Origin: Desulfobacterales bacterium
Lineage (GTDB): Bacteria; Desulfobacterota; Desulfobacteria; Desulfobacterales; JAFDCJ01
Assembly (NCBI GenBank): GCA_029939875.1
Contig: JAOZSC010000051.1
Span: 1-10,613, forward strand
Direction: 5' to 3'
DNA: 10,613 nt
The translations under genes were made by a program, and so were the position numbers. This document shows positions 832 through 10,613 of this stretch, piece after piece. Position 1 is the stretch's first letter; every line of letters starts with the position of its first letter. The notes below the pieces were generated by a model. That model had not been told where the DNA came from. It did not search any database and worked only from the letters and a program-made list of their open reading frames with translations.

Positions 832-2292
832 TCACTGCTTGGAGTGGATCTTTTCACTCAGCTGTTGGTAACGCACCAGGGCGGCCATAGCCCGGGCCGC
901 CCGTTGGGGGGCCGGCAGTACCACAATACCGTGTTCCAACAGTGTCCGGACAAACAGGTCGTTATATTCCTGAAATGTGAAACCGATCAGCGGCTTTTGA
1001 TGCTTTTCTATCAAGTCGGTCAACGCCCGGGATTGATCGGTAAAAAGTTTTTCAGTCAGCTGCGGAATCTGGTCATCAGAGACCCCCATGTCCTGCATGG
1101 TGCGTCGGATGCTCTGGCTGGGAGCCAGAAAATAAATCAGCAGCCCGTCGGCATTTTCGGCACCGAGAAGGATATCGGGAATGGCGGCAAAATAATCCAA
1201 CGGATTTTTGGCAAAAGTCAGATCAACCGGATTGCTCACACTGCCGGTGTGGGGCACCAGCGGTGCAAGCTGCTGCCGCGTTGGCACAAGAATCGACGGC
1301 AGCTCCAGACCCGAACGGCTGCAAGCGTCAGCCGCTGCCGCACCAGGCCCCCCCGAGTGGGTCTGGACAATTATTCGCTTGCCCCCGGGCCGGGGGCAGG
1401 CTCCCAGGGCCCAGCAAAAATCAAACAGCTCGGTGATGGAATTAGCGCGGATCACACCGCTTTGTCGAAATACACCGTCATAAAGGGCATCCGGGCCAGC
1501 CAGGGCGCCGGTGTGCGAAAAGCCGGCGCGCTTGCCTGCCTCGGAGCCGCCGGCATAAAAAGCGACCACCGGCTTGTGGGGGACAATTGCCCGGGCCGTC
1601 TCGATAAAAGCCCGACCCCGCCGGATAGTTTCCACGTACAACCCGATCACCCGTGTATGGGGACAGGCCGCCAGGTACTGCATGCACTCGACGATATCCA
1701 CCCGGGCCTCGTTGCCAACGCTGATGCCGGCGGAAAACCCCAACCCGAAGCGTCGCAGGTATCCAAACATCTGGGTAATCAGGCTGCCGCTCTGGGACGC
1801 CAGACCGATGAATCCAGCCTGGCCCTCAAACGGCAAAAACGTCATATTGAATTTGTGGTGGGGATTGGCGACTCCAAGGCAATTGGGTCCCAGAAAGCGA
1901 ATGCCGTATCGGTCGGCCACCGCCAGCAATCGCTTTTCCAGCTCCGCCCCCGATCCACCGACTTCCTTGAACCCGCCGGAAACCACAATGGCATGTCTGA
2001 TCCCTTTCTGGCCGCATTCTTCCATTACCTGGGGTACGACTTCAGTAGGCAGCACCATCACCGCCAGGTCGGGAATTTCGGGCAGATCCTGCACGCGTTG
2101 ATAGGCCACAAGATCCAGCACCTTCTTTTCCCGTGGGTGAATCGGATAAATGGAACCTTCAAATCCTAAAGATTTCAGCGAATTCAGCTGGTTGGTCCCC
2201 ATGGAGGAAAACCGGTTGGAAGCACCGAAAAAAGCGATGCTGCGCGGATTTATGATACGATACAACGGGCTTTCTTTGATATTATTGACCAT
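832..2292 (-). CDS. NDP-forming acyl-CoA synthetase, alpha (CoA-binding, phosphohistidine) subunit
   Basis: 486 residues from the chosen start. Order of domains: CoA-binding Rossmann domain (about 12-150, with NPRSIAFFGAS and FLGPNCLG), then two succinyl-CoA-synthetase-like domains (about 155-470). The phosphorylated histidine is H260 in SHTGALAG, Glu221 in GLYVETI is its likely partner, and SGGPG (313-317) and NPVD (354-357) are further family motifs. The family converts acyl-CoA + ADP + Pi to acid + CoA + ATP, or the reverse, as AcdA/ACD alpha. The acyl substrate cannot be read from the sequence. A longer frame begins at 2325, but the ATG at 2292 has a GGGGAG ribosome site just upstream, gives the usual N-terminus (PLYRIINPRSIA) and overlaps the beta gene by only 11 bp, which suggests translational coupling. 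The usual fused arrangement is split here into two genes, beta first. A long frame on the opposite strand over this gene is a shadow. Confidence 0.9.
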   Translation of the reverse strand: MVNNIKESPLYRIINPRSIAFFGASNRFSSMGTNQLNSLKSLGFEGSIYPIHPREKKVLDLVAYQRVQDLPEIPDLAVMVLPTEVVPQVMEECGQKGIRHAIVVSGGFKEVGGSGAELEKRLLAVADRYGIRFLGPNCLGVANPHHKFNMTFLPFEGQAGFIGLASQSGSLITQMFGYLRRFGLGFSAGISVGNEARVDIVECMQYLAACPHTRVIGLYVETIRRGRAFIETARAIVPHKPVVAFYAGGSEAGKRAGFSHTGALAGPDALYDGVFRQSGVIRANSITELFDFCWALGACPRPGGKRIIVQTHSGGPGAAAADACSRSGLELPSILVPTRQQLAPLVPHTGSVSNPVDLTFAKNPLDYFAAIPDILLGAENADGLLIYFLAPSQSIRRTMQDMGVSDDQIPQLTEKLFTDQSRALTDLIEKHQKPLIGFTFQEYNDLFVRTLLEHGIVVLPAPQRAARAMAALVRYQQLSEKIHSKQ

Positions 2293-2986
2293 TTTGCTCC
2301 CCGCCCAAAACCACCAGGGCATCAACGGCCACCACCCGCCCAGCAGGATCGATAATCATGGGATTGATGTCAATTTCGGCCACCGCCCCGTGATCGAGAC
2401 CGATCTGCCCTAACGCCATAAGAGCGGTACAAATGGTTTCGCTATCCGCGGCGGCCTGCCCCCGAAAATCGTCCAGGATGGCACTGGAGCGCAGCTCACT
2501 GAGCATGTCCAGGGCTTCGATGCGATCAAAAGGTGCCACCCGGAACACGGTATCGTTGATGATCTCGGTCATGATCCCGCCCAGGCCGAACATGACGCAG
2601 GGGCCGAACTGCGGATCACGGCTCAGCCCCAGGACCACCTCCCGTTGCCCGGCAATCATTTCCTGGACCAGGACGCCTTCGAGGTCAAGATCAATGGCCG
2701 TAACAATGCGCTGATAAGCCTCGCGCAGTTCGGACTCATCCCGGATCCCCAGGGCGATGCAGGCCGCTTCGGTTTTGTGCATCAACTCCGGCGAACAGGC
2801 CTTGAGCACCACCGGATACCCGATGGCGTCAGCGGCCGATACGGCGTCAGTGAAGTTTTGGACCAGGGTTTCCTGGGTCACCGGAATGCCATAGGCGCGC
2901 AACAATTGTTTCGAGGTGTATTCGGACAGGGCCCGTTGCCTTTTATCCAATGCGGTTTTTATAAGATCCATGGATTCTATCATCAT
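2282..2986 (-). CDS. NDP-forming acyl-CoA synthetase, beta (ATP-grasp) subunit
   Basis: 234 residues, the normal size for the separate beta (AcdB-type) subunit, consisting of one ATP-grasp domain. Visible motifs are LLRAYGIPV (28-36), PVVLKACSPELMHKTE (58-73), VLVQEMI (105-111), GPCVMFGLGGIMTEI (128-142), and the metal-binding end AEIDINPMII (203-212). H70 in the SPELMHK segment matches the position reported as a second phosphohistidine in archaeal ACD beta subunits. Odd point: the glycine pair that normally follows HK(S/T)(D/E)xGGV is replaced by alanines (KTEAACIAL). Two adjacent ATGs (2986 and 2983) follow an AAGGAA; the second has the better spacing, so the true start may be one codon later. 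It binds nucleotide and, with the alpha subunit encoded immediately downstream, should form the cytosolic heteromeric enzyme. The hydrolase gene lies 75 bp upstream on the same strand. Confidence 0.9.
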   Translation of the reverse strand: MMIESMDLIKTALDKRQRALSEYTSKQLLRAYGIPVTQETLVQNFTDAVSAADAIGYPVVLKACSPELMHKTEAACIALGIRDESELREAYQRIVTAIDLDLEGVLVQEMIAGQREVVLGLSRDPQFGPCVMFGLGGIMTEIINDTVFRVAPFDRIEALDMLSELRSSAILDDFRGQAAADSETICTALMALGQIGLDHGAVAEIDINPMIIDPAGRVVAVDALVVLGGEQNGQ

Positions 2987-4480: not shown

Positions 4481-5788
4481 CTATCTTTCATTGATGGGAA
4501 CATATCGGGTTTCTTCGGGTCCCGTATAAATCTGTCGCGGCCGGCAAAGCTTCCAGTTGGGATCGTCTATGCTTTCCTTCCACTGGGCAATCCATCCCGG
4601 AAGCCGGCCGATGGCGAACATCACCGTGAACATGTTGGTGGGAATTCCAATGGCGCGCAGAACGATGCCGCTGTAAAAATCAACGTTGGGATAAAGATGG
4701 TGCTCAATGAAATAATCATCCCGCAACGCAATTTCTTCCAGTTCCTGGGCCACATCCAATAGGGGATCTGAAATCTTGAGTTTTTTCAGCAGTCGGTGAC
4801 AAACCTTTTTCATGATCTTCATGCGCGGATCAAAGGTCTTGTAAACCCGGTGGCCGAATCCCATCAGCCGGAAGGGGTCATTTTTGTCCTTGGCCCTCTC
4901 AATCACCCGGGCCATGTTGTTGTCCTCGGCGATATGGCTTAGCATTTCAATGACGGCCTGGTTGGCCCCGCCGTGCAGCGGCCCCCAGAGAGCGGCAATG
5001 CCGGCGGAAATAGCACTGTACAGATTCACCCGGGCGCTGCCGACCACGCGCACCGCAGTGGTCGAACAGTTCTGTTCATGGTCGGCATGCAAAATCCAGA
5101 AAACATTCAAGGCGGTGGTAACCACTTTGTCAATCCGGTAGGGTTTGACCGGCGAATCGAACATCATGTTCAAAAAGTTGTCGCAGTACGCCAGATCGGG
5201 CCTCGGATAAACGACCTTGTGGCCCCGGGAAATCTTGTAGGACATGGCGGCCATGGTCCGGATTTTGGACAGCAGGCGGGTGACGGTCCGGTTAATTTCC
5301 TCTTCCAGGTTCTGAATTTCCGGGTAAAAACTTCTCAAAGCATTGACCATGCCTGACAAAATTCCCATGGGATGGGAAGAGCGGGGAAAGTTCTCATAAA
5401 ACGCCCGCATATCCTCATGCACCAATGAATTGTCATTGAGCAGCACCGAAAAGCTCGTCAGCTCCGATCGGGAGGGCAGCCTGCGGTTGATCAACAGGTA
5501 AGACGTTTCAATAAACGTGGAATTTTCGGCCAGCTCTTCCACCGGGATGCCCCGGTAGCGTAAAATTCCCTTTTCTCCGTCCATGAAGGTTATGTCGCTG
5601 GTGCAGGCACCGGTGTTGGCATAGCCGGGATCCAGCGTGATCAATCCGGTTTCCCTGCGCAGCGCCGAGATGTCGATGGCTTTTTCGCCTTCCGTGCCCT
5701 CAATGACCGGAAGCCGGTGCTCTTTGTCGCCGTAAATGAATTTTACAAATTCCTTCATTGCACCTTTTTCTCCGATCCGATTATTCAT
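4481..5788 (-). CDS. gltA: Citrate synthase (type I, GltA-like)
   Basis: 435 residues, the usual length for bacterial type I citrate synthase (E. coli ~427). It condenses acetyl-CoA and oxaloacetate to citrate and CoA in the cytosol. All catalytic residues are visible: H272 (GPLHGGAN), H313 (GFGHRVYK) and D370 (NVDFYSG), plus the oxaloacetate-binding HADHEQN (234-240) and the C-terminal RPRQIYTG. The length and N-terminal beta domain (about 12-50) fit the hexameric gram-negative form. Two starts are plausible: the ATG at 5788 (AGGA 4 nt upstream), or residue 11 at 5758 (MKEFVKF), which has AAGG and GGAG upstream; the longer form is kept. The stop is TAG, and the frame remains open after it for 88 codons. 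The gene is divergent from an unrecognised gene across a 139-bp gap. In anaerobes of this group it serves the oxidative or reversible TCA cycle; the direction cannot be inferred here. Confidence 0.96.
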   Translation of the reverse strand: MNNRIGEKGAMKEFVKFIYGDKEHRLPVIEGTEGEKAIDISALRRETGLITLDPGYANTGACTSDITFMDGEKGILRYRGIPVEELAENSTFIETSYLLINRRLPSRSELTSFSVLLNDNSLVHEDMRAFYENFPRSSHPMGILSGMVNALRSFYPEIQNLEEEINRTVTRLLSKIRTMAAMSYKISRGHKVVYPRPDLAYCDNFLNMMFDSPVKPYRIDKVVTTALNVFWILHADHEQNCSTTAVRVVGSARVNLYSAISAGIAALWGPLHGGANQAVIEMLSHIAEDNNMARVIERAKDKNDPFRLMGFGHRVYKTFDPRMKIMKKVCHRLLKKLKISDPLLDVAQELEEIALRDDYFIEHHLYPNVDFYSGIVLRAIGIPTNMFTVMFAIGRLPGWIAQWKESIDDPNWKLCRPRQIYTGPEETRYVPINER

Positions 5789-6816: not shown

Positions 6817-7638
6817 CTACCGGAAGCTCTCCACGGCCTGGCGGAAAATGTCGTTGATAATGTGCACCTGCACTTCCTTTACGCCCGGGATCTTTTCCGC
6901 CAGCGCTTTGACGGCCGCGGTCTTTTTTTGCTTCTCGCGTTTCAGCCCTCCGGTTTCCACCACCACTTTGCCGCCGTCGGCTTCCACGCGCACATCCGGA
7001 AATTGTTCCATTAATGCTGCGCGCACCCGGCTGCCCAGCTCCCAGTCCTGCAAGCACTTCAGGGAGTAAGTCATGGGTTTAAAGCGGCGGTGGTCCACCG
7101 TATCGGTGATAATCCGCACGGCCTCGTCGGCGTCGATCTGACCCAGATTAATCACCAGGTCGTAGTGAGAGGGATCGGTCTCGTCCACCTTGAACGCATC
7201 CAGAGACCAGCGCCTGGCGAATTTCTCCCGGTTTTTTGCCTTTTTTCTGCTGCGCCGCGACACATCCGCTGGTGAGACCTTCCCGCCGACCCGGCCCCCG
7301 GAACTCGCAAGAATGCGCACCTTGAGAACGTGGGAGACACCGTGAACATAGAGATGGGCGCTCAAACCGTGGCAGACCACTTGGTCCTGCAATAATTCCC
7401 CCAGAACCGCCTCCTGAATGTAGGCCAGGCACCGATCCCGCAACTTGGTGGAAATTCCCATAAAAGACGGGGTCTCATCCAGGGCCATGATCAGCTTCGC
7501 TTCCTCAATACCATACCGGTTGGCCACTGCCGGCAGAATTTCCCGGTCCAGATAGCGGTATCCAAGGGCTTGCGCCGACTTTTCACCGATCTTGCGGCCC
7601 CTGCGGTAAGAATCTGACGAGATGACGACAATGGACAT
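6817..7638 (-). CDS. Cytidylate kinase-like family protein with degenerate P-loop and C-terminal BON-like domain
   Basis: 273 residues. Residues 1-185 follow the cytidylate kinase-like (Cytidylate_kin2) pattern: an opening beta strand, ALGYRYLDREIL (24-35), VVCHGLSAHLY (87-97), VRILA (107-111), the Arg/Lys-rich lid SRRSRKKAKNREKFARRW (127-144), and YDLVINLGQIDADEAVRII (159-177). Where the family has a Gly-rich P-loop (SR..GSGG..I), this protein has SSDSYRRGRKIGEK (7-20), so the GSGG core is missing. Phosphate binding may be altered or lost. Residues about 199-262 look like a BON domain (PDVRVEADGGKVVVETGG ... IPGVKEVQVHI), a fold linked with membrane or phospholipid association and sometimes with regulation. 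The gene follows the SulP stop by 15 bp with an AAAGGGG ribosome site, so it is almost surely co-transcribed and may act on or with the transporter (inference). The stop is TAG, and a terminator follows. Confidence 0.82.
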   Translation of the reverse strand: MSIVVISSDSYRRGRKIGEKSAQALGYRYLDREILPAVANRYGIEEAKLIMALDETPSFMGISTKLRDRCLAYIQEAVLGELLQDQVVCHGLSAHLYVHGVSHVLKVRILASSGGRVGGKVSPADVSRRSRKKAKNREKFARRWSLDAFKVDETDPSHYDLVINLGQIDADEAVRIITDTVDHRRFKPMTYSLKCLQDWELGSRVRAALMEQFPDVRVEADGGKVVVETGGLKREKQKKTAAVKALAEKIPGVKEVQVHIINDIFRQAVESFR

Positions 7639-7653
7639 AGCTTGATCCCCTTT

Positions 7654-9789
7654 TTAATTGGGTTCTATCCGGCAGTAGGTCATCAGGGGACAGGCGTCCT
7701 CCTCGCCGTCCCGGTGCGCTTTTTCGTGGGCAGCTGTAATCGCCTTTTCCATGGTCGCGTGGATGTGATCCTCGCCGATTTTCTCCGGAAAATGGGTGCG
7801 CTTGAAGACCTTCATGACAGCCTCGTTCACACCGCTCAGCGATACGTCGATTCCTGCGCTGCGGATTCTGTCCACAAGCAAAGATAATGCCTCCTCACCC
7901 GACGCGTCAATATCATTAATGCCGTTGAACACGAGAATAATGTGCTTGAGCTCCTTTTTGCTGGCCATCAGATCCATGATCTGATCTTCCATGTAGCTGG
8001 CGTTGGCAAAAAAAAGTGGGCCATCGAACCGTACCATGGCCATATATCTGCATTCCTTGAGCCCGTGAGCGATACAATCCCGCAGGGACTGGTCCTGGGC
8101 CCTGGAAAGCGTGGCGATGGTGGGGCGCATGCTCTTGTACAGAAACACCATCAGCGAAAGCCCCACTCCGACCATGATGCCCCGGTCCAGCTCCGGCGCA
8201 ACGAGTAAGGTGATGACAAAGGTGATGATTGAAATAGCACCGTCATACCACTGGGTTTGCCAGGCATGAATGAAGCCCGAGACATTGACCAGCCCGATGA
8301 CGGCCATCATGATGACCGCAGCCAGCACAGCCTGGGGCAGGTAGTATAAAAGCGGGGTGAAGAACAAAAGCACAATGACCACAATCAGGCTCGTAAAAAC
8401 GCTGGAAAGCCCGGAAACCGCTCCGGCCTGCAGATTGACGGCCGACCTGGAAAAAGAGCCCGACGTCGGATAACTTTGGCCGAAGGAGCCGCAGATATTG
8501 GCCAATCCCTGCCCGATCAGTTCCTGGTTGGGATCCAGGCGCTGGCCCGTCTTGGCAGCCATGGCCTTGGCAATGGCAATGGCCTCCATAAACCCCAGCA
8601 GTGAAATAATGACAGCATAGGGAAACAGCCTGAACACCACCTTGAGATTAATGTCCGGAACCGTCAAGGCGGGCACCCCCTGGGGAATGGCGCCGACCAC
8701 CGCCCCGCCGCCCATCAGCATGAGATTGTCCGTCTTAAGCAATTTGTTGCCCACCTTGATCCGCCAGGTGCGTCCGTCACTGTGGACCCCTGGCGGGATT
8801 TCCTTTTTCGAGTAAAACCGAAAACGACCGTCGCTCTGCTCCACCCCGGTCAACAGGTAGCGCCTGATTTTTTTTCGATATACATGGGCCTCATCTTTAA
8901 TGCGTTCCAGGTTGAGCATCAGGATGCTGGCACGGTGTTCGGCGGTCAGCACGGCCACGATGTCATGGGCGCGGTGGGCACTTTCCAGGGCCAGGTTCAC
9001 TTCGGTTTGCTCCTCGGCAAACTTGGATATGTTGTCCACTGTTTGATTGAAATGCGCGATTAATTGCCTGAGTTCACCGGACTGAATGGCCTCAATGCCC
9101 GTTGTGGTGTTATGCTGAAAACCGGTGGCCCAGGAGATGATCGTGGTCACGGCCACCGCCGCCAGAACATTCGGAATTTTGGGCGATATCCACCGGAGTC
9201 CATACATGATCCCGAATGCCAGGGCGCCCATCAACAGGGTGGGCCAGTGGATATAGTGCACAGCGGCCTGGGCCACCCGCCAGATGGTCTCGTAATGGTG
9301 GTGCTGGCCCTTATCCACGAAAACACCGAATAACTTGGATAGCTGGGAGGAGGCGATGATCAGAGCCGCGGCATTGGTAAAGCCGTTGACCACCGGATGC
9401 GAGAGGAAATTGACCACCAGGCCGAGTCTTAACACGCCGAGGCTGAATTGGAAGGCACCCACCATCAGGGCCAGCAAAACGGCATACATGATGAAGCCTT
9501 CGCTGCCGATGGCGGCCAGGGGTTCCAGGGAGGCGGCGGTCATCAAAGAAACAATGGCCACCGGTCCTGTGGCCAGCTGGCGGCTGGAGCCGAAAAGTGC
9601 GGCTATCATGGGTGGCAGAAAAGAAGCATAAAGCCCATAATAGGCGGGAAGCCCCGCCAGTTGGGCATACGCCATGGACTGAGGGATGAGCACCAACGCG
9701 ACCGTTATTCCCGCCAGCAGGTCAATTCTCAAAGAATTCAGGCCATAGCCTTCGAACCAGTTTAAAAACGGAAACACGCGTTTTATCAT
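7654..9789 (-). CDS. SulP/SLC26 family anion transporter with STAS domain and a large insert
   Basis: 711 residues; typical bacterial SulP proteins are ~550-600. The membrane domain carries the SulP signature LPAYYGLYASFLPPMIAALF, then GSSRQLATGPVAIVSL (about residues 47-82). It continues with LSHPVVNGFTNAAALIIASSQL (129-150) and the second half from about 380, including GFMEAIAIAKAMAAKTGQRLDPNQELIGQGLANICGSF (399-436 region). The STAS domain is at about 575-690 (NGINDIDASGEEALSLLVD in its nucleotide-binding-like loop). Between the two membrane halves, residues ~224-362 form a hydrophilic stretch with helices and basic residues (HVYRKKIRRYL), where other SulPs have a short connector before IPxGLP. 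By the known 7+7 topology this loop should face the periplasm (inference). The substrate may be sulfate or bicarbonate (BicA-like); the divergent carbonic anhydrase favours inorganic carbon. AAGGG lies 6 nt before the ATG. First gene of a two-gene operon. Confidence 0.93.
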   Translation of the reverse strand: MIKRVFPFLNWFEGYGLNSLRIDLLAGITVALVLIPQSMAYAQLAGLPAYYGLYASFLPPMIAALFGSSRQLATGPVAIVSLMTAASLEPLAAIGSEGFIMYAVLLALMVGAFQFSLGVLRLGLVVNFLSHPVVNGFTNAAALIIASSQLSKLFGVFVDKGQHHHYETIWRVAQAAVHYIHWPTLLMGALAFGIMYGLRWISPKIPNVLAAVAVTTIISWATGFQHNTTTGIEAIQSGELRQLIAHFNQTVDNISKFAEEQTEVNLALESAHRAHDIVAVLTAEHRASILMLNLERIKDEAHVYRKKIRRYLLTGVEQSDGRFRFYSKKEIPPGVHSDGRTWRIKVGNKLLKTDNLMLMGGGAVVGAIPQGVPALTVPDINLKVVFRLFPYAVIISLLGFMEAIAIAKAMAAKTGQRLDPNQELIGQGLANICGSFGQSYPTSGSFSRSAVNLQAGAVSGLSSVFTSLIVVIVLLFFTPLLYYLPQAVLAAVIMMAVIGLVNVSGFIHAWQTQWYDGAISIITFVITLLVAPELDRGIMVGVGLSLMVFLYKSMRPTIATLSRAQDQSLRDCIAHGLKECRYMAMVRFDGPLFFANASYMEDQIMDLMASKKELKHIILVFNGINDIDASGEEALSLLVDRIRSAGIDVSLSGVNEAVMKVFKRTHFPEKIGEDHIHATMEKAITAAHEKAHRDGEEDACPLMTYCRIEPN

Positions 9790-9832
9790 AACCAGCCCTT
9801 ACAGTTTCTTTATCTTTTTCGTTTTATTTACA

Positions 9833-9848
9833 GGGCCGTCAACGGCCC
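9833..9848. promoter_or_regulatory. Short GC-rich hairpin in the sulP leader
   Basis: GGGCCG, TCAA, CGGCCC: a perfect 6-bp GC stem with a tetraloop (TTGA on the - strand), 43 bp before the SulP start codon. No T-tract follows it on the - strand, so it is unlikely to terminate transcription there. It may be a stabilising stem or part of an alternative fold in the SulP 5' leader. On the + strand it is followed by GTTTCG, which is also weak. Confidence 0.45.
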
Positions 9849-9886
9849 GTTTCGATTATGCATCGTTTCTTTGCCCGGGATTGGCT

Positions 9887-9923
9887 AAAAAAAAAGATCC
9901 TATCGTGGACAGTATCTTTTTTT
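9887..9923 (-). terminator. Intrinsic terminator inside the sulP upstream region
   Basis: On the - strand: AAAAAAAGAT, one A/G mismatch, CTGTC, loop CAC, GATAG, ATC, then nine T. The inner 5-bp stem uses one G.U pair that exists only in the - strand RNA; on the + strand the same position is an A.C mismatch, so the hairpin favours the - strand. It sits about 25 bp after a predicted start of transcription and about 97 bp before the SulP ATG, on the same strand as SulP. It is therefore either an attenuator for sulP or the 3' end of a small RNA. Its AT-rich outer stem makes efficiency uncertain. Confidence 0.6.
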
Positions 9924-9946
9924 ATAAGGAGATTTGCTTTATTACC
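9887..9946 (-). ncRNA. Candidate ~60-nt leader RNA or small RNA upstream of sulP
   Basis: The strong - strand promoter at 9953-9981 and the terminator ending near 9887 define a potential RNA of about 60 nt (9946 down to 9887). Its 5' part contains AAGGA-like bases (around 9945-9952) that can pair with TCCTT (9926-9930), which could compete with the terminator stem. It matches no riboswitch class I can recognise. If transcription continues past the terminator, the rest is a ~157-nt leader of the SulP operon. The ends are predicted, not observed. Confidence 0.3.
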
Positions 9947-9952
9947 GCATCC

Positions 9953-9981
9953 TTTATAAAAATATGACCCGATAAAGTCAA
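9953..9981 (-). promoter_or_regulatory. Strong sigma70-type promoter for the sulP operon / leader RNA
   Basis: On the - strand: TTGACT (9981-9976), a 17-nt spacer, TATAAA (9958-9953). Both boxes match the consensus at 5 of 6 bases with optimal spacing, the best promoter match in the window. Transcription would begin near 9946. It lies in the 320-bp gap (9790-10109) between the divergent SulP and carbonic anhydrase genes; the remainder of that gap on the + strand shows no convincing promoter for the carbonic anhydrase gene. Confidence 0.62.
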
Positions 9982-10109
9982 GCCTTTTCACCCCAAAATC
10001 GAAGGCGGCCCGCAAAAATAATTGTGCCGATGCTAAAAACATGATATTTACTGCTTCTTTATACACGCCAGGCAATTTAATTCATTGTTTTTCCGGAAAG
10101 GAGACCCAT

Positions 10110-10613
10110 ATGGAACTGCTGAAAGAAATTCAATCCGTTTTTGCGAAGGCCGAGGTGGCCCGCATTTATTTTGGCAACCAGAACATCCTCCTGGAGCAGC
10201 AATATGGCTTCACACCCGGCAATACCCGCTTTGCAGAAGGTGGCTGTTGCGATGAAATCAATGAACTGGAGTACCGGTTGATGGAAAACTATTGGGGTGA
10301 GCGTTTTAAGTTTGGCGGACTGGCGGGTTACTGTCACGGCGGCAAAACCGGCTTGATGGCGGTTGCCCACCACATTCCGGAAGCCGACGGGCAAAAAAAC
10401 CTGCTGCTGTTGGCCGGACCCCACATCGGATTTCACCGGGGACAATGGGGAAAAGTTCCGCGCAAAGGCCAGACTGGGATCACCGCCTCATGCGGTTCGC
10501 TGGCAACCGTGCTGCAGACCGGCTACGCAGCCATCTGTGAAAAATCCGACGATCGGCTGGACCGCCAACAGCAAAGCGTTGAGCAGTTGCTGCTGCCTTA
10601 CCTGGAAAAATGA
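10110..10613 (+). CDS. LCIB/LCIC-family (theta/beta-like) carbonic anhydrase
   Basis: 167 residues from the ATG at 10110, which follows AAAGGAG (10097-10103). A longer frame from 10041 adds 23 unlike residues with no ribosome site and is rejected. The sequence follows the limiting-CO2-inducible protein B/C carbonic anhydrase pattern: YGFTPGNT (32-39), a Cys-x-Asp-Glu segment (C46-C47-D48-E49), WGERFKFGGLAG (62-73), GKTGLMAVAHHIPEADG (78-94), GPHIG (103-107), R118 with GQ, and ASCGS (126-130). Expected zinc ligands are C46, H105 and C128, with D48 as part of the catalytic dyad. The family hydrates CO2 reversibly in the cytosol; Chlamydomonas LCIB works in CO2 concentration. It is small, a single domain. 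It is divergent from a SulP transporter across 320 bp, pointing to a shared inorganic-carbon role (inference). The last bases of the window are its TGA, so it is complete. Assignment from remembered motifs, without alignment. Confidence 0.82.
   Translation: MELLKEIQSVFAKAEVARIYFGNQNILLEQQYGFTPGNTRFAEGGCCDEINELEYRLMENYWGERFKFGGLAGYCHGGKTGLMAVAHHIPEADGQKNLLLLAGPHIGFHRGQWGKVPRKGQTGITASCGSLATVLQTGYAAICEKSDDRLDRQQQSVEQLLLPYLEK

What the first reader, a model, noticed from the sequence alone, without database searches (positions are those of the whole stretch)
6817..10613. Possible inorganic-carbon module: SulP + kinase-like/BON protein divergent from an LCIB-type carbonic anhydrase
Seen: a SulP/SLC26 transporter, a 15-bp-spaced kinase-like/BON gene and a divergent LCIB-motif protein share one control region. 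Known: SulP members include bicarbonate transporters (BicA), some SulPs are fused or adjacent to carbonic anhydrases, and LCIB works in algal CO2 concentration. Inference: this is a bacterial bicarbonate uptake/CO2 recapture unit, in what looks like an anaerobe without carboxysomes, where it could feed carboxylases or Wood-Ljungdahl enzymes. The third partner, a kinase-like protein with a BON domain, is not a known part of such modules. Sulfate uptake remains the alternative.
Basis: partly seen in the sequence, partly recalled or inferred. Interest (0 to 1): 0.72.

Follow-up and report, generated by a model that had tools for sequence, protein, structure and literature searches.

The report
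Sulfate-type transporter beside LCIB carbonic anhydrase
A sulfate-reducing bacterium carries a sulfate-type membrane transporter with a regulator-like partner and, facing the other way, a carbonic anhydrase of the algal LCIB type; related carbonic anhydrases turn up beside another family of anion transporters in distant relatives, hinting that sulfate uptake and bicarbonate handling may be linked.

Summary
The three genes are real. SulP (711 aa) fits the sulfate-type 'group Ci' described for sulfate reducers (about 710 aa, long insertion, AYYGLY), not BicA (133 bits, cut-off 880). The host genome has dsrA. Of 33 group-Ci loci examined, 28 have a Cytidylate_kin2 ('KIN') gene directly downstream and 23 a histidine kinase: the 'third partner' is the usual one, here short, without receiver domain or Walker-A lysine. 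LCIB is a genuine LCIB_C_CA gene, cut by the contig end; the intact 239-aa P0062 folds like PtLCIB4. SulP-LCIB linkage is rare: 3 of 7 strict-LCIB genomes found among 389 of the class. Elsewhere in the phylum LCIB lies directly downstream of a DASS anion symporter in 6 of 9 genomes, 2 of 3 families. Best reading: a sulfate/anion-transport module with an attached cytosolic carbonic anhydrase, perhaps coupling sulfate uptake to HCO3-/H+. A bicarbonate-uptake module is not excluded; feeding of Wood-Ljungdahl enzymes is unsupported (no CdhC found, genome 80% complete).

The parts
6817..7638 (-). KIN: Cytidylate_kin2-like protein, 273 aa, with C-terminal BON-like part; degenerate P-loop (no Walker-A Lys); lacks the receiver domain of the ~408-aa KIN usual in relatives
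7639..7653 (.). 15-bp gap between SulP stop and KIN start, with a purine-rich ribosome-binding-like sequence
7654..9789 (-). SulP/SLC26 anion transporter, 711 aa, group-Ci-like (sulfate-type): D23, Q37, Y41, AYYGLY 49-54
   Evidence: criteria from PMC5840216
8707..9114 (-). long insertion region in SulP (about residues 226-361), where matches to other SulPs break
9889..9923 (-). terminator-like hairpin in the SulP leader (-11.5 kcal/mol, z -3.9), conserved in L007
   Evidence: not among the hits of the terminator scan
9953..9981 (-). promoter-like TTGACT-17-TATAAA reading toward SulP, conserved in L007
   Evidence: read by eye; not among the hits of the scan
10110..10613 (+). LCIB-type beta-carbonic anhydrase gene, cut by the contig end; intact relative P0062 is 239 aa
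5928..6716 (+). u262, conserved unknown; with citrate synthase it also lies near the SulP operon in L092, L094, L096 (other side) and L097 (same side as here)
4481..5788 (-). citrate synthase, syntenic neighbour of the SulP locus

Best explanation
This is the sulfate-type (group Ci) SulP locus of a dissimilatory sulfate reducer, rebuilt in one lineage: SulP keeps a cytoplasmic KIN (kinase-like/BON-like) partner but lacks the neighbouring histidine-kinase/receiver genes, and a cytosolic LCIB-type beta-carbonic anhydrase gene sits divergently at its promoter side. SulP brings in sulfate; KIN, with a degenerate nucleotide site, regulates the transporter or its expression rather than acting as a CMP kinase; LCIB interconverts CO2 with HCO3- and H+ next to the transporter, supplying or removing the ion that moves with or against sulfate (SO4/HCO3 exchange, or buffering of proton-coupled uptake). 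Shown: gene identities, conserved SulP-KIN order, predicted LCIB fold and conserved active-site-type residues, recurrent LCIB-transporter linkage. Inferred: sulfate as substrate, carbonic anhydrase activity, functional coupling. Speculative: HCO3-/H+ as the coupling ion.
For: SulP: BicA model 132.9 bits (cut-off 880), while a SulP of the same order (L155) scores 465 on it; length, insertion and P-to-A in PXYGLY match group Ci of PMC5840216. dsrA present. KIN within 300 bp downstream in 28 of 33 group-Ci loci (305 bp in L101), HK further downstream in the same direction in 23 of 33; KIN pairs also follow CitMHS/Na_sulph_symp transporters in 5 loci, and KINs precede other SulPs in 2. u262/citrate synthase near the SulP in 4 other loci. 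LCIB: PF18599 118.7 bits; model of P0062 matches PtLCIB4, TM 0.82. LCIB-SulP proximity in G000, G006 and G053. LCIB directly downstream of DASS in 6 of the 9 non-window genomes over the PF18599 cut-off (all 3 DASS proteins scanned pass TIGR00785), with an HK 42% identical over 526 aa to the SulP-operon HK in one.
Against: Only 3 of 7 strict-LCIB genomes show SulP near LCIB, two of them one genus. 30 of 33 group-Ci stretches lack LCIB. TIGR00815 does not separate substrates: E. coli DauA scores 501 on it, the window 441; among solved structures prestin ranks second to SULTR4;1. The tree lacked Rv1739c, PA1647 and BicA, used only those stretches of SULTR4;1 that aligned to the window protein, and has one weak inner node (0.46, joining group Ci plus SULTR4;1 to the L139-L143/L145 group). 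PMC5840216 reports that P-to-A in PXYGLY reduced membrane trafficking of a plant transporter (though with higher affinity) and that no SulP is essential for sulfate transport in D. vulgaris. DASS-linked LCIBs carry an Arg between Cys and Asp (CRDE), the column of the PtLCIB4 S47R mutant, so they may not work like the window's CCDE form. No substrate was tested for these transporters in anything I read.
Confidence: 0.42

Rival explanations
1. Coincidental neighbours: a sulfate-type SulP-KIN pair and an independent housekeeping carbonic anhydrase that share an intergenic region in one small clade.
For: No SulP near five other LCIB loci with 4-21 kb of sequence, nor within 1.5 kb in 30 LCIB or LCIB-like loci (the short G053 stretch among them stops before its SulP); 30 of 33 group-Ci stretches have no LCIB; no canonical beta-CA (PF00484) found in G000, so LCIB could simply be the cell's CA.
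Against: LCIB 2.6 kb from a group-Ci SulP in a different family, with KIN/HK genes on the other side; DASS-LCIB pairs in two other families; L073 has LCIB directly behind cl6, the gene divergent from SulP in four same-genus genomes and two others.
Confidence: 0.28
2. Inorganic-carbon uptake module: the SulP (and the DASS elsewhere) move bicarbonate, and LCIB traps or releases CO2 for carboxylases.
For: LCIB acts in algal CO2 capture (PMC9614477, passages); the SulP family includes BicA; LCIB recurs next to two unrelated transporter families; one DASS-LCIB host is Thermodesulfobacterium.
Against: SulP is far from BicA and sulfate-type by several criteria; close group-Ci relatives without LCIB are widespread in this order; CdhC not found in the genome, which is 80% complete.
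Confidence: 0.22
3. LCIB is a non-catalytic or conditionally active CO2/bicarbonate-responsive subunit that regulates the transporter, perhaps taking over from the histidine-kinase/receiver genes that are missing in the window.
For: Algal LCIB has shown no measured activity in vitro (PMC5876011 and PMC9614477, passages); the window has u262 where relatives have HK genes; L007 cannot be judged, its contig ends inside KIN.
Against: The window-type LCIB has a small residue (CCDE) where wild-type PtLCIB4 has Ser, and all the conserved Cys/Asp/His; PtLCIB4 appears active (PMC9614477, passage).
Confidence: 0.08

Closest known systems
SulP group Ci of sulfate reducers (Marietou et al. 2018, PMC5840216)
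   Same: about 710 aa, long insertion, PXYGLY with P to A, conserved Asp/Gln/Tyr; close relatives widespread in this order
   Different: here with a short KIN, without HK/receiver genes, and divergent from LCIB; in the paper's main text 'cytidylate', 'histidine kinase' and 'carbonic anhydrase' occur 0 times
LCIB/LCIC beta-carbonic anhydrases (PtLCIB4, PDB 5b5y; 6kfs; 9vzj)
   Same: PF18599, same predicted fold, conserved Cys/Asp/His/Cys; no signal peptide visible by eye
   Different: in a sulfate reducer beside a sulfate-type SulP; activity untested
BicA bicarbonate transporter
   Same: same SulP superfamily
   Different: scores 133 of the 880 bits required; sulfate-type features instead
SulP-carbonic anhydrase fusions (recalled, Rv3273-like; no call)
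   Same: a SulP coupled genetically to a carbonic anhydrase
   Different: separate divergent genes and the LCIB subtype instead of a fused canonical CA
DASS family (TIGR00785) symporters of other Desulfobacterota
   Same: also paired with LCIB genes, with similar HK/receiver genes in some
   Different: unrelated transporter family (recalled); LCIB directly downstream on the same strand, CRDE form

Membership tests
LCIB_C_CA beta-carbonic anhydrases | PF18599 above curated cut-off | tested here: met
   118.7 bits, cut-off 25
LCIB_C_CA beta-carbonic anhydrases | conserved Cys, His, Cys and Asp of the active site | tested here: met
   C46, D48, H88, C128 invariant and H105 at least 90% over 52 sequences; all invariant in A4. 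Which of them bind the metal is inferred from the beta-CA pattern of two Cys and one His (PMC5876011, passage)
LCIB_C_CA beta-carbonic anhydrases | LCIB fold | tested here: met
   model of P0062, pLDDT 89; PtLCIB4 TM 0.82, E 1.6e-15; the intact relative was modelled, not the cut window ORF
LCIB_C_CA beta-carbonic anhydrases | carbonic anhydrase activity | not testable with these tools
   needs enzyme assay
SulP/SLC26 transporters | Sulfate_transp and STAS domains, TIGR00815 over cut-off | tested here: met
BicA bicarbonate transporters | NF050096 over its cut-off of 880 bits | tested here: not met
   132.9 bits; the highest of ten other SulPs scanned, L155, reaches 465, itself below the cut-off
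SulP group Ci (sulfate clade C) | about 710 aa with long insertion | tested here: met
   711 aa, matches to other SulPs break at about 220-361
SulP group Ci (sulfate clade C) | PXYGLY motif with A or S for P | tested here: met
   AYYGLY, residues 49-54 (criterion)
SulP group Ci (sulfate clade C) | groups with Rv1739c and PA1647 in a tree | not tested
   reference sequences not at hand; the tree places it with SULTR4;1 (1.00) and apart from DauA, SLC26Dg and the BicA-like pair (0.965)
SulP group Ci (sulfate clade C) | transports sulfate | not testable with these tools
   needs uptake assay
Cytidylate kinase (CMP kinase) | P-loop with Walker-A lysine (GxxxxGK[ST], recalled) | tested here: not met
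   SDSYRRGRK in the window KIN; KIN-A type has GSYSKGKE
BON domain proteins | PF04972 over cut-off | tested here: inconclusive
   17.4 bits, cut-off 27; predicted secondary structure compatible
SulP-carbonic anhydrase fusions | one polypeptide | tested here: not met
   separate divergent genes

The most novel reading that the evidence does not exclude
LCIB-type carbonic anhydrases are dedicated partners of sulfate-type anion transporters of two unrelated families (SulP group Ci and DASS) in sulfate reducers of several lineages, so that sulfate uptake is coupled to CO2/bicarbonate, for example as sulfate-bicarbonate exchange drawing on respiratory CO2.
Probability: 0.27. Interest if true: 0.8.

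Novelty: new variant of a known kind. Interest (0 to 1): 0.58.

Why it matters
How sulfate reducers import sulfate is an open question (PMC5840216, abstract and sections 20 and 24). A conserved SulP-KIN-histidine-kinase gene order and a DASS-LCIB pair give concrete regulators and a concrete accessory enzyme to test. If LCIB couples sulfate uptake to bicarbonate, it ties the first step of a major anaerobic respiration to carbon chemistry, and gives bacterial LCIB proteins a role outside CO2-concentrating mechanisms.

Tried and rejected
Wood-Ljungdahl feeding: CdhC not found in G000; at 80% completeness this is weak. LCIB as replacement of the canonical beta-CA: Pro_CA absent in 7 of 7 strict-LCIB genomes against presence in 108 of 389 class genomes; by chance about 0.72 to the 7th power, or 0.10, so not significant; of the 6 same-genus genomes without LCIB 2 have Pro_CA. 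A known RNA element in the SulP leader: no Rfam match in the window at E <= 1. Viral relatives of LCIB: none confirmed in viral contigs. SulP or KIN within 1.5 kb of 30 LCIB or LCIB-like loci: none (G053's SulP lies beyond its short stretch). The ~400-aa LCIB400 family: of 15 loci fetched, DASS on 2 (L181, L182), CBS without DASS on L183, neither on the other 12; Pfam match marginal (23.0 and 25.7 bits, cut-off 25) and absent for the L182 protein, so not counted as support. The CitMHS transporter of the KIN pairs scores 107.9 on TIGR00785, below its cut-off of 198.6, so it is not filed as DASS.

Literature, listings only unless said otherwise: SulP with LCIB, 24 papers, 10 listed, by title on algae, plants or CO2-concentrating mechanisms; LCIB with sulfate-reducing, 0; cytidylate kinase-like with sulfate, histidine kinase and operon, 0; cytidylate kinase with SulP, 21 papers, 8 listed, none on topic by title; SulP with carbonic anhydrase, fused, bacteria and sulfate permease, 8 papers, not opened; limiting CO2-inducible with sulfate, 1 paper, algal. 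These cover only the open-licence PMC library.

The promoter scan of the region found 6 sites against 2.3 expected and the terminator scan 8 against 5.2; neither lists the TTGACT-17-TATAAA site or the leader hairpin, which were read from the alignment.
Full report
What is in the window. The window is one whole contig (C435, 10,613 bp) of a 3.04-Mb, 515-contig assembly that is 79.7% complete. The finding's genes are SulP 7654-9789(-), KIN 6817-7638(-) and LCIB 10110-10613(+). SulP and KIN are 15 bp apart. LCIB ends on the last base of the contig; its relative in the same genus, G006, reads on past the same point, and P0062 in the protein collection is identical over the first 166 residues and continues to 239. 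The short form is therefore most likely a contig-end effect; a real premature stop is not excluded. A search of the window's genome with a full-length LCIB found no other match.

The host. dsrA is present at 618.1 bits, cut-off 392.85, which fits a dissimilatory sulfate reducer; the records of G053 and of the same-genus G006 are titled 'Desulfobacterales bacterium' (L070, L076). No CdhC and no canonical beta-CA were found; both absences are weak at this completeness.

The SulP is sulfate-type. Pfam and TIGR00815 (441 bits) are over their cut-offs; the BicA model gives 132.9 of 880 and DauA 231.8 of 614 bits. In a calibration on ten other SulPs (E. coli DauA and nine from the order) DauA scores 1010 on its own model, L153 and L158 score 496 and 491 on it, and L155 scores 465 on BicA, these last three below the cut-offs. 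TIGR00815 does not separate substrates, since DauA scores 501 on it. The best solved relative is the plant sulfate transporter SULTR4;1, 322 bits, followed by a prestin (271); the transmembrane-only BicA chain has 89. PMC5840216 (abstract and sections 12, 16, 20 and 24 read; other passages seen by term search) describes a SulP group Ci in sulfate reducers: about 710 aa, an insertion of about 90 aa, mostly A or S for P in PXYGLY, within the clade of the sulfate transporters Rv1739c and PA1647. The window SulP has 711 aa, a break between residues about 220 and 361 against other SulPs and AYYGLY. A tree of 34 sequences joins it with 11 other group-Ci sequences (0.99) and SULTR4;1 (1.00), apart from DauA, SLC26Dg and the BicA-like pair (0.965); the next node, joining them to the L139-L143/L145 group, is weak (0.46), the SULTR4;1 and SLC26Dg entries are partial, and Rv1739c, PA1647 and BicA itself were not available.

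The kinase-like partner is the rule, not the exception. Of 58 genomes searched, 46 have SulP matches and 51 KIN matches. Of 40 stretches examined, 33 hold a group-Ci SulP; in 28 of the 33 a KIN gene starts within 300 bp downstream on the same strand (in L101 it starts 305 bp away; the others without are L102-L105), and by my count of the printed rows a histidine kinase of one family follows in the same direction in 23 of 33, several contigs ending too early to tell. The usual KIN is about 408 aa; the two of these scanned end in a receiver domain. The window and L007 are the only two of the 33 whose KIN is of the short type. Its best relative outside the genus (56%) lies behind KIN-A and a CitMHS/Na_sulph_symp transporter in G033; such KIN pairs follow such a transporter in 5 loci (L108-L112) and KINs precede other SulPs in 2 (L149, L150). 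KIN is therefore tied to several putative anion transporters. Its P-loop is degenerate and its model matches NMP/shikimate-kinase-like folds, so a regulatory, pseudokinase-like role is my inference. Citrate synthase and u262 lie near the SulP operon in L097 on the same side as in the window, and in L092, L094 and L096 on the other side, which suggests that this is the orthologous SulP locus, shortened and with LCIB added. In four same-genus genomes (L092, L094-L096) and two others (L097, L101) the gene divergent from SulP is cl6, about 411 aa, without Pfam match in the one scanned.

The carbonic anhydrase. LCIB_C_CA at 118.7 bits. Over 52 sequences C46, D48, H88 and C128 are invariant and H105 nearly so. 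The model of P0062 (pLDDT 89) matches PtLCIB4 with TM 0.82, and LCIB, LCIC and canonical beta-CAs lower down. The residue between Cys and Asp is C47; the PtLCIB4 S47R mutant in the PDB changes exactly this column. What that mutation does I recall only vaguely and do not rely on. Algal LCIB itself has shown no measured activity in vitro, while PtLCIB3 and 4 appear active (PMC5876011 and PMC9614477, passages).

How far the linkage goes. A profile of four LCIBs found 7 strict members (over 350 bits) in 389 class genomes, plus 14 weak ones. SulP lies near LCIB in 3 of the 7: G000 and G006 (divergent) and G053 (2.6 kb apart, three ORFs between, with KIN, HK and receiver genes on the far side of SulP). 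It is absent from the available sequence of the other four (4.4, 5.4, 15.6 and 20.7 kb) and of a SAR324 locus (18 kb). In one of these, L073, cl6 lies directly upstream of LCIB on the same strand, which links LCIB to the SulP neighbourhood indirectly; the contig ends inside cl6. A further case is likely from equal contig length and source (P0046 with P0123). P0060, a 79%-identical LCIB on a 95-kb contig, has no partner of that contig length in the list of the 120 best SulPs, which is unresolved.

An unexpected parallel. In a sample of 395 phylum genomes, 10 exceed the PF18599 cut-off, one being the window's. In 6 of the other 9 (families f99 and f109) LCIB lies directly downstream of a DASS symporter, 71-72% identical between the families in the two pairs compared; the three DASS proteins scanned pass TIGR00785. 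CBS, receiver and histidine-kinase genes accompany it in some; the HK scanned has a dCache domain and is 42% identical over 526 aa to that of the SulP operon. The remaining 3 genomes, one genus, have no DASS beside LCIB; G472 has a CitMHS transporter about 2.1 kb away. PMC5840216 describes a highly conserved DASS group Ci with thermodesulfobacterial members (section 16); whether these DASS belong to it was not tested. The five LCIBs of this group that I aligned differ from the window by an invariant R in CRDE (one of the five, L178, is not DASS-linked).

Control region. The 320-bp divergent region is conserved with G006 and holds a TTGACT-17-TATAAA site (9981-9953, minus) and a terminator-like hairpin (9923-9889; z -3.9) in the SulP leader. 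This suggests attenuation of SulP; no LCIB promoter was identified.

Verdict. Observation confirmed. Interpretation partly supported: the carbonic anhydrase is real and LCIB genes do recur beside anion transporters, but the transporter is sulfate-type and its usual neighbourhood lacks LCIB. My own estimates: SulP moves sulfate 0.7; LCIB is an active CA 0.75; functional coupling 0.5; HCO3-/H+ as coupling ion 0.3.

Noticed in passing
L171-L175, L179: DASS symporter directly upstream of LCIB in other lineages of the phylum, including Thermodesulfobacterium sp. TA1, with CBS, receiver and histidine-kinase genes in some; the four DASS-linked LCIBs aligned (L171, L172, L173, L175) have CRDE instead of CCDE.
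   Followed up: partly
window 9889-9923 (-): Terminator-like hairpin between a promoter-like site and the SulP start, conserved in L007; a possible attenuator without Rfam match.
   Followed up: partly
L092, L094-L097, L101 (cl6); L073:3-1148: Conserved ~411-aa unknown protein (no Pfam match in the one scanned), divergent from SulP in four same-genus genomes and two others, and directly upstream of LCIB in L073.
   Followed up: partly
L010:5951-7081 and L181-L195: A ~375-400-aa family with marginal LCIB_C_CA match; in G020 near a TSUP-like transporter, its partner gene and a histidine kinase similar to that of the SulP operon.
   Followed up: partly
G000:C49 (L114): KIN with receiver domain (409 aa) and a histidine kinase of the SulP-operon family lie on another contig of the window's genome without SulP beside them.
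   Followed up: partly
window 832-2986 (-): ADP-forming acyl-CoA synthetase split into alpha-like and beta-like genes, near a universal stress protein and an MBL hydrolase.
   Followed up: no
L071:8676-9878: A protein that looks by eye like a MOT1-type molybdate transporter, beside ABC-transporter-like genes, about 3 kb from LCIB in SG8_13; not scanned.
   Followed up: no
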